A stretch of 64,000 nt of DNA, taken from assembly GCA_002839605.1 (NCBI GenBank), contig PGYK01000010.1, positions 1 to 64,000 on the forward strand, read 5' to 3'. A program made the position numbers and the translations under genes. This DNA is from Methanomicrobiales archaeon HGW-Methanomicrobiales-3 (GTDB taxonomy: Archaea; Halobacteriota; Methanomicrobia; Methanomicrobiales; Methanospirillaceae). The first letter of the stretch is position 1, and every line of letters starts with the position of its first letter. Positions 7,487-32,098 of this stretch are shown in pieces. A model generated the notes under the pieces. That model ran no database searches and was not told the origin of the DNA. It saw only the letters and a program-made list of their open reading frames with translations.

Positions 7487-7911
7487 AGAAGGGGGATATG
7501 AGATTGTCGGATGCCTGCGGTTATAGCTATCTTCACGGGAGCACGGGAAAAATGGAGCTCTGGTGAAAACCTGCGATGGGTTGTATTGGTTTGCGATGGA
7601 ACCACTGGCGCTCGGGGTCTCATCGACCCTCGCCTTTGTGGAGCAGGCCGTAAATGGGCGCCTGTAACTAAATGATAGAACCGGGGGTTGTGGGGGCTTG
7701 CCCCCGCAGGCTGCCGCCCTCCTCTTTAGGTAGAGTGAGGGTCACCCTCAGAATTCCACAAGATGACACTGTGGGAATGATTTAATATGAAAATGTCCTC
7801 AAAAATTTCATCCTGTGTGCCTGTGGCCGCAGGCATCATGTCCATTTCCCATGAAAATCACAATCGATAAGGATTCACAGAACTTTTGTTGGTTTATTGC
7901 GATGCCTGCCG

Positions 7912-8162
7912 CCACCCCCGACAGGAAGCCCCCGTGGCGGCCTCAATTTCTGTTTTTCATGAAAATTTTGTGGGAAATCACCTGTTTGAGGGTTCCCTAT
8001 GGAGACCATGCGGAGCACTATCACTTCCGCAGCCCGACCATTGCGCGACATTGGGGGCCTTGCCGCCCCCATAAGGAGCGCAAGGATGCGGGCGAGGACG
8101 GATATGGTCAAATATTTAAACGATTTTCATCATTCTGGTGCGAACCTTCCGGTTCATGTGCG
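7912..8162 (+). repeat. Interspersed intergenic element, copy A
   Basis: The roughly 1-kb space between tspO and the UPF0316 gene has no convincing gene. It holds a 250-base element that recurs, reverse-complemented, at 31692-31923. The core at about 8029-8070 (gcagcccgaccattgcgcga, then a GGGGGC...GCCCCC hairpin) is identical in both copies, followed by aggagcgcaaggatgcgggc and gaggacgg. It ends near a GGTGYGAACC...GTTCATG sequence. Identity continues without codon-like spacing, so the similar translations of the two copies do not mean a protein. Another GC-rich palindrome (gggggcttgccccc) lies near 7693-7706. Confidence 0.65.
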
Positions 8163-8469
8163 TTTCACCAGATCAAAAATGGGGCTCCATTCCAAATTGC
8201 GGTTGTTGACCCCGATCCTGAATAATTATGCTGATTGGAGCTGACGCACACTACTCCTCCTGCGATGACCGTTGCCGCCCCGGGGAAAGCTCCTGCGGGG
8301 GCTCATGCACTACGGCCGTATACGGGATTTGCCGAATAGAGATTTGAGTGAGATGCCCGAATGCCGGACCAATCCCCGCTTGAAGCCAGTTGCCGGGACG
8401 TTTTATCCGGCAGATGCCAAAACAGGAAGAAGAGAGATTGTCATGAGATTTCCAGGATCGGTTACCCAA

Positions 8470-15124: not shown

Positions 15125-15232
15125 GTATTACCTTTATCGGGGGCACTTGAAGGTACGGTAATACAACACTATCGCAACCGGGGGATGCCCGAGCGGCGGG
15201 GGCGGAGGCTTGCCGGAGCCCCCAAGAGCGAT
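15125..15232. repeat. Intergenic inverted repeat and degenerate copy of the interspersed element
   Basis: The 345 bases between the HEAT gene and the receiver gene contain no gene. TGTATTACC at 15125-15133 pairs perfectly with GGTAATACA at 15158-15166. The following sequence (cactatcgcaaccg, then ggcttgccggagcccccaag and agcg) resembles the core of the element at 7912-8162 but is degenerate. It is placed in that family with reserve. Confidence 0.4.
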
Positions 15233-24911: not shown

Positions 24912-24985
24912 TGCCGCAAGGATGCGGGCGGGGGCGTCTGTTTTCCTTGCCGGGCATTTTCATGCTTTTGGTGTGAACCATCGTT
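24912..24985 (+). repeat. Partial copy of the interspersed intergenic element
   Basis: gcaaggatgcgggcgggggc, then ttttcatgcttttggtgtga and accatcgttcatgcccg repeat the 3' part of the element at 7912-8162 in the same order and orientation. The upstream core is missing. The rest of the 250-base gap between the GTPase and the kinase shows nothing else. Confidence 0.5.
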
Positions 24986-31653: not shown

Positions 31654-31691
31654 GGTGTGAGCAGTGCTCACGGAGAGATAGGCATGAACGG

Positions 31692-31923
31692 GTGGGGTCA
31701 CACCCGATACAGGAAAATTCCCAAAATAATGAGTACATCCGTCCTCGCCCGCATCCCTGCGCTCCTTTTGGGGGCGGCAAGGCCCCCAATGTCGCGCAAT
31801 GGTCGGGCTGCGGTAGCGATAGTGCCTCAGATGGCGTGCATGCAGGACCCTCAAGAAGGTGATTTGCCGGGATATTTTCATGAAAACCAGTATTGAAGCC
31901 GCCGCGGGGCGCCCTTCGGGGCG
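31692..31923 (-). repeat. Interspersed intergenic element, copy B
   Basis: This is the reverse-complemented copy of the element at 7912-8162, including the identical core with GGGGGC...GCCCCC, the aggagcgcagggatgcgggc block, and a GGTGTGACC...CGTTCATGCC end beside the FEN-1 gene. It occupies most of the 445 bases between FEN-1 and the next kinase. The remaining sequence holds a second GC palindrome (gggggcatcagccccc, about 31949-31964) and no gene. Confidence 0.65.
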
Positions 31924-32098
31924 GCGGCAGTAATCCTCACGGGGGTATGGGGGCATCAGCCCCCATCAATATTCGTTTCGTGTTTTTCATGGATAATCCT
32001 TCGAAGTGATGATGGGAGTATACAGCCCACATTCCTCCTTAAAGATGCTTGCCGCCTACCACCCCTCATGAGTATCGTGGCATCCAGCCCTCACCATC

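What the first reader, a model, noticed from the sequence alone, without database searches (positions are those of the whole stretch)
7912..8162. Interspersed intergenic element family, two clear copies and two partial
Copy A (7912-8162, plus) and copy B (31692-31923, minus) share a core of more than 40 identical bases with a GGGGGC/GCCCCC hairpin and several flanking blocks in the same order. Partial copies occur at 24912-24985 and, more degenerate, at 15165-15232. The conservation ignores codon positions. It may be a non-autonomous mobile element, a structured RNA, or a REP-like sequence bound by a protein.
Basis: seen in the sequence. Interest (0 to 1): 0.55.

Follow-up and report, generated by a model that had tools for sequence, protein, structure and literature searches.

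The report
Modular miniature transposons in a methanogen
The repeated stretch is the right half of a small transposon without its own transposase, scattered in patchwork versions between the genes of a methane-making archaeon and probably moved by the enzyme of an IS5-type insertion sequence found in sister species.

Summary
The repeat is real. Copy A is the right part of a longer element (window 7556-8174, 619 bp) that starts AGCTCTGGTGAAA, ends TTTCACCAGATC and is flanked by AAAAATGG on both sides. [quoted passage not shown] The right-end module M1 has 129 places in the own genome at E<=1 and occurs in 38 of 39 genomes of the genus. The conserved core occurs 32, 23 and 3 times in three genomes and was not found in the other 36. 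Of 41 left-tip/right-tip pairs, 14 have 8-bp flanks equal at 7 or 8 positions, against 2.2% of cross-pairings. IS5-family insertion sequences of about 1 kb in sister genomes have the same 13-bp tips; 8 of 11 copies examined have perfect 8-bp duplications. None was found in the own assembly. The element is modular, with parts exchanged between orthologous loci. Structured RNA, REP/RAYT and coding readings are not supported. Verdict: a MITE family, not found in print for this genus in three searches, with an architecture like pneumococcal BOX.

The parts
7548..7555 (.). left target-site duplication AAAAATGG
   Evidence: sequence; identical to 8175-8182
7556..8174 (+). complete element A (619 bp): tip - M5 - M3 hairpin - M4 with core - M1 - tip
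   Evidence: tips AGCTCTGGTGAAA and TTTCACCAGATC; modules by nhmmer
7566..7783 (+). module M5 (left cassette, found in either orientation)
   Evidence: nhmmer E 1e-67; also matched in G013, G020 and G017
7907..7948 (+). module M3, G+C-rich hairpin (REP-like in look)
   Evidence: nhmmer E 0.0017; fold
7964..8100 (+). module M4, one of several alternative middle cassettes
   Evidence: nhmmer E 1.5e-42
   Evidence: cmsearch 107.6 bits; 32 copies in own genome at E<=0.01
8123..8174 (+). module M1, right end with outer tip
   Evidence: cmsearch 53.9 bits
8175..8182 (.). right target-site duplication AAAAATGG
   Evidence: sequence
31673..31974 (-). element B, decayed tips: M2 (31941-31974), M3 (31892-31929), M4 (31740-31876), M1 (31673-31718); outer left part not delimited
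31740..31815 (-). conserved core of element B
   Evidence: cmsearch 101.6 bits
24912..24998 (+). decayed fragment: 3' end of core, spacer and M1 without outer tip
   Evidence: M8 E 2e-8; core-like part by eye only, not found by model R2

Best explanation
The finding is part of a family of modular MITEs of the genus Methanoregula. Shown: many elements start near TGCTCTG(T/G)NGAAA, end near its reverse complement, and those with well-matching flanks (14, about 240-820 bp) carry 8-bp, mostly A/T-rich target duplications. No protein family is recognised in copy A. They lie between genes, more often at gene 3' ends. Inside, hairpin-rich cassettes (M2 to M9) occur in varying combinations, joined at short shared seams such as TTTCCCATGAAAA. 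Inferred: an IS5-family DDE transposase supplied in trans (full copies with the same 13-bp tips exist in sister genomes) inserts them into A/T-rich sites. The patchwork interior probably arises by ectopic recombination or gene conversion between copies. The 76-nt M4 core is a sub-module carried along and spread by this exchange; no host function is shown.
For: Copy number: 59 BLAST places; 129 M1 places at E<=1; core 32, 23 and 3 copies in 3 of 39 genomes; M1 in 38 of 39 genomes. Tips and duplications: 14 of 41 tip pairs have 7-8 of 8 flank bases equal in one fixed frame, against 2.2% of cross-pairings. Partner: PF01609 insertion sequences of about 1 kb, IS5 family by NCBIfam NF033579, tip TGCTCTGTAGAAA or close variants, 8 of 8 duplication bases in 8 of 11 copies examined. 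Empty site: G000 lacks the G013 element of L171; its flanks are adjacent at the T-tract used as target. At copy A the matching stretches of G017 lie about 110 bp apart, against about 1030 bp in the window. Modularity. Place: 33 convergent, 24 tandem, 5 divergent gaps, 0 inside a gene, 13 unclassified, against 5, 36 and 5 gaps in the window.
Against: No copy of the partner is seen in the own assembly: PF01609 gives 2 places there, without a pair of these tips. Partner and MITE share only 11-17 terminal bases in two of three MITEs compared by BLAST; copy A gave no hit at E<=1. 27 of 41 tip pairs do not reach 7 of 8. Copy A matches 6 of 8 in the strict tip frame; 8 of 8 only when its right end is set one base earlier. 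Four of the 14 good duplications are near-homopolymers (L029, L096, L129, L171), though the cross-pair control has the same base make-up. Three of 11 insertion-sequence copies match at only 4-6 of 8. Copy B has no clean tips.
Confidence: 0.9

Rival explanations
1. The M4 core is a functional structured RNA that has been picked up by, and is maintained inside, the elements.
For: Mean core identity is 0.87-0.91 at every level of identity of the neighbouring M4 part (0.47 to 0.92), while the spacer just beyond it is 0.45-0.56 in five of six bins (1.0 in the last, 3 pairs). The inner helix keeps 97% of its pairs. Without the loop-side helix, changes at paired positions are mostly C>T or A>G, which keep G-U pairs on this strand (42 against 12 cells; unpaired 26 against 51).
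Against: No covariation above shuffled columns (paired cells 91.2% against 91.1%; 203 of 500 shuffles as high). RNAalifold covariation term 0.02. Three of the four pairs of the loop-side helix are broken in 12-13 of 39 rows, mainly by changes of its 5' arm. By columns the strand asymmetry is weak (11:5 against 10:10). No Rfam match. A constant divergence of about 13% also fits one burst of sub-module spread.
Confidence: 0.07
2. REP/REPIN-like palindromes moved and bound by a RAYT (Y1) protein.
For: The M3 and M2 modules are G+C-rich extragenic palindromes.
Against: PF01797 has 0 matches in 6 of 6 genomes, while it rings in 5 of 14 control genomes. Many elements have tips and 8-bp target duplications.
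Confidence: 0.02
3. Decayed pieces of a protein-coding gene or of a full insertion sequence rather than MITEs.
For: A 136-aa open frame spans 7815-8225.
Against: No Pfam family at E<=1 for that frame. Length differences in the core shift the frame. The 14 elements with good duplications are 237-824 bp long, and the insertion sequence shares only end bases with the elements compared.
Confidence: 0.01

Closest known systems
BOX elements of Streptococcus pneumoniae (PMC3049150, passages read)
   Same: Modular intergenic repeats with TIR and target duplications, 125 elements in one genome, 67-637 bp, variable inner modules; an insertion sequence with somewhat similar ends has been proposed as the mover.
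   Different: Archaeal host, IS5-type tips, 8-bp duplications, several alternative cassettes instead of tandem boxB units. No relation by descent is claimed; sequences were not compared.
IS5-family insertion sequences of sister Methanoregula genomes (NCBIfam NF033579; L268, L244)
   Same: 13-bp tip TGCTCTGTAGAAA or close variants and 8-bp A/T-rich target duplications.
   Different: About 1 kb with a transposase; only 11-17 terminal bases are shared with the MITEs L171 and L195.
Prokaryotic MITEs in general (review PMC10969869, passages read)
   Same: Multicopy, TIR-bounded, non-autonomous, moved in trans.
   Different: Strongly mosaic inside; the word 'modular' does not occur in the review's main text.
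REP/REPIN elements (PMC3116915, seen in a search listing only)
   Same: Extragenic palindromes.
   Different: No Y1 transposase found in 6 genomes; target duplications present.

Membership tests
MITE | terminal inverted repeats | tested here: met
   41 tip pairs; copy A tips
MITE | target-site duplications | tested here: met
   14 of 41 pairs at 7-8 of 8 in a fixed frame, control 2.2%
MITE | multicopy, short, no transposase gene | tested here: met
   no Pfam family in the 136-aa frame of copy A; other copies were not scanned with Pfam
MITE | autonomous partner with matching ends | tested here: met
   in sister genomes; not found in the own assembly
MITE | actual transposition in trans | not testable with these tools
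   needs an experiment; one filled/empty comparison
IS5-derived MITE | partner belongs to the IS5 family | tested here: met
   NF033579 at 196.3 and 207 bits, cut-off 140
REP/REPIN with RAYT | Y1 (RAYT) transposase in the genome | tested here: not met
   0 of 6 genomes
structured RNA family | compensatory base changes | tested here: not met
   1 of 20 pairs with a change on both sides, shuffled mean 0.8
structured RNA family | match to a described family | tested here: not met
BOX element | boxA/boxB/boxC sequences | not tested
   comparison is of architecture only

The most novel reading that the evidence does not exclude
The elements are a cassette-exchange system: fixed transposon ends in which alternative hairpin modules (M4, M6, M7, M8, M9) are swapped, also at the same chromosomal place, and at least the M4 core is kept by selection because it does something for host or element at gene 3' ends, for example as a terminator or RNA-level insulator.
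Probability: 0.15. Interest if true: 0.65.

Novelty: new variant of a known kind. Interest (0 to 1): 0.38.

Why it matters
A 2024 review says that relatively less is known about MITEs of archaea (PMC10969869, passage), and three searches showed no account for Methanoregula. Here one genome has over 100 traces of one family, with a likely donor transposase in sister genomes, an empty site, and orthologous elements that differ by whole modules. It would let specialists test how mosaic MITEs arise, and it may explain why several UBA154 contigs end near these modules. It also removes a false lead towards a new RNA family.

Tried and rejected
Partner families tested for matching tips and rejected: IS6-type PF13610 (3 of 39 genomes, 0 in G000; 4 loci read, one unpaired tip-like stretch in L213); ISL3 PF01610 (4 of 39, 0 in G000; 4 loci read, no tip); IS1595 PF12762 (14 of 39, 0 in G000; 24 loci read, isolated tip-like stretches but no pair). 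Two long tip-to-tip spans, L157 and L197, were read as open frames only: no transposase was recognised by eye, and they were not run against a family library. Viral contigs: 0 exact matches for one core pattern and one M1 pattern. A 34-bp match of the core to a secD gene in another family is probably chance. Covariation of the core: not found. Coding: rejected. L194 against L180 gave no readable empty site.

Gene context rests on my own simple codon-usage gene caller; 13 of 75 clusters could not be classified. The 41 tip pairs come from 35 loci, 6 of them counted twice with alternative partners. Left out: 6 of 35 copies in the identity profile, 5 of 35, and from the 49 core rows four rows of three duplicate loci and five short rows, leaving the 40. 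Seed M10 gave no hits. Scoring caps (150 of 1648 M1 candidates, 123 candidates a genome, 40 of 83) make counts lower bounds. Models R1 and R2 were built from copies found here, R2 from G000, G013 and G020 alone, so they may miss distant relatives.

Full report
1. What was checked. The two main copies are real and far beyond chance: 79% identity over 253 columns, E 3e-53, with 45 bases identical in a row and 3 differences in the 76-base core. The own genome (2.59 Mb, 18 contigs) has 59 BLAST places for the 258-bp query at E<=10, pieces of copies included. The 24912 partial copy is real; the 15165 one is supported only by a neighbouring cassette.

2. Host. An exact pattern of the right-end module was found in 10 stretches of the genome collection, from two Methanoregula MAGs, UBA154 and UBA276 (that scan may leave out the own genome). 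G017 has contigs of the same lengths (78412 and 161229) as two UBA154 records and is in the same genus as the own genome. So the host is taken to be a Methanoregula species (inference).

3. Boundaries. The identity of aligned copies falls to about 0.3 right after the right tip. Reading outwards, many copies show a left tip GCTCTG(G/T)NGAAA and a right tip TTTCN(A/C)CAGAGC. For copy A these are at 7556 and 8174, with AAAAATGG on each side.

4. Target duplications. In a fixed frame 14 of 41 tip pairs (35 loci) match at 7 or 8 of 8 flank positions; cross-pairings of different loci give 2.09% + 0.12%. Non-homopolymer examples with 8 of 8 are TGAAATCG (L195), AAACCAAA (L181), AAAAATGA (L179) and AGAAAAAC (L174). 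The other 27 pairs do not match that well, as expected for old copies or wrong pairings, but this is also a fact against. Copy A reaches 6 of 8 in the fixed frame and 8 of 8 with its right end one base earlier.

5. Empty site. Locus L171 of G013 has an element between two genes whose relatives in G000 (L125) are adjacent: CCGTTCCTTTTTT in the empty site against CCGTTCCTTTTTTTTTC before the element, 28 bp after a stop codon. Beyond the T-tract the intergenic sequence is diverged, so the right junction was not read exactly. At copy A the matching stretches of G017 lie about 110 bp apart, against about 1030 bp in the window. In G020 an element with cassette M7 lies beside the same right-hand gene; its left neighbour is beyond the contig end.

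6. Partner. DDE_Tnp_1 (PF01609) gave 26 matches in G030 and one to three in seven of the other nine genomes searched. Eleven of the G030 rows have the same score; the seven of these that I delimited are 1006-bp insertion sequences with tips TGCTCTGTAGAAA. G017 has a 1007-bp relative with GGCTCTGTAGAAA; G022 has two (1002 and 988 bp). Of 11 copies examined, 8 have identical 8-bp flanks such as ATTATTTT and GAATAATC; the other three match at 4 to 6 of 8. NCBIfam names the protein IS5 family. Of the six MITEs with 8 of 8 duplication bases, four carry exactly TGCTCTGTAGAAA at both ends and two differ in the first two bases. By BLAST, insertion sequence and MITE share 11-17 end bases only (L171, L195), and copy A gave no hit at E<=1. 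The own assembly has two PF01609 places without a pair of these tips, so there the driver is lost, unassembled or never was present.

7. Anatomy. Nine recurring modules were traced with profile searches in 234 loci. A frequent order is tip, M5 in either orientation, M2, M3, a further cassette, M1, tip; a short form is tip-M5-M1-tip (L130). Of 96 distinct M1 copies in G000 loci, the module just inside is M4 in 29, M9 in 22, M2 in 16, M3 in 6, M5 in 10 (6 of them reversed), M6 in 4, reversed M2 in 3, reversed M4 in 1, M8 in 1, and nothing recognised within 150 bp in 4. M7 was seen in other genomes. Several elements have M1 at both ends, facing outwards (L004, L005, L027, L029, L061, L091). At orthologous loci of G000 and G013, one pair is alike along most of its length but has an unlike patch within M5 (L013/L175); others differ in whole modules: L030/L066 have different left parts and the M4 cassette on different sides of a similar M1, and L016/L191 have M3 against M5. 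Three such pairs were aligned. This points to exchange between copies after insertion; independent insertion is not excluded in each case.

8. The core. Mean core identity is 0.87-0.91 at every level of identity of the adjacent part. This can mean constraint, or one burst of spread by exchange. The tested base pairs do not covary. A bias towards pair-keeping C>T and A>G changes is seen by cells, not clearly by columns. The core was found in 3 of 39 genomes, M1 in 38 of 39, so the core is probably a late addition and not needed for movement (inference).

9. Where they sit. With a simple gene caller, 33 of 62 classified clusters lie between convergent genes, 24 between tandem and 5 between divergent genes, 0 inside genes; 13 were unclassified. 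The window's own gaps are 5, 36 and 5. In G000 49 tips face a gene 3' end and 17 a gene 5' end; in the G013/G020 loci 18 and 8. Flanks next to 3' ends are 74% A+T; the T share is similar at tips facing 5' ends (0.40 against 0.44), and only 18 of 49 have a TTTTT run, so a preference for terminators as such is not shown; A/T-rich targets plus selection against promoter insertions would do.

10. Comparison with what is known. The family meets the MITE features that I could test. In architecture it is closest to pneumococcal BOX elements, which are modular, with TIRs and duplications, 125 in one genome (PMC3049150, passages); no sequence comparison was made. The 2024 review names archaeal MITEs in Sulfolobus, Halobacterium, Haloquadratum, a Desulfurococcus-type archaeon and several other genomes (PMC10969869, passages). 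Searches for Methanoregula with repeats or MITEs, and for MITEs in methanogens, listed 3, 1 and 8 papers, none about these elements by title and abstract (listings only). That this family is unreported rests on these searches alone.

Noticed in passing
L268-L273 (G030), e.g. L268:1126-2097: The transposase frame of the 1006-bp IS5-family element has no stop codon of its own; it reads through the right tip into the target, so copies with the same score have open frames of different lengths (315-357 aa).
   Followed up: partly
L082 (G061), 1501-1534: 34-bp match of the core to a secD gene in another family; probably chance, but capture of a gene fragment was not excluded.
   Followed up: partly
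L156, L157, L158, L159, L160, L161 (UBA154): An M1 module lies within about 280 bases of the contig end in these six loci, which suggests that assemblies break at these repeats.
   Followed up: no
L059:1048-1125 (-): A diverged core copy whose predicted hairpin is long and well paired although many bases differ from the other copies.
   Followed up: no
G000:C12:137832-139332: Two adjacent DDE_Tnp_1 transposase genes, one with a stop codon inside, with a separate element tip just downstream.
   Followed up: partly
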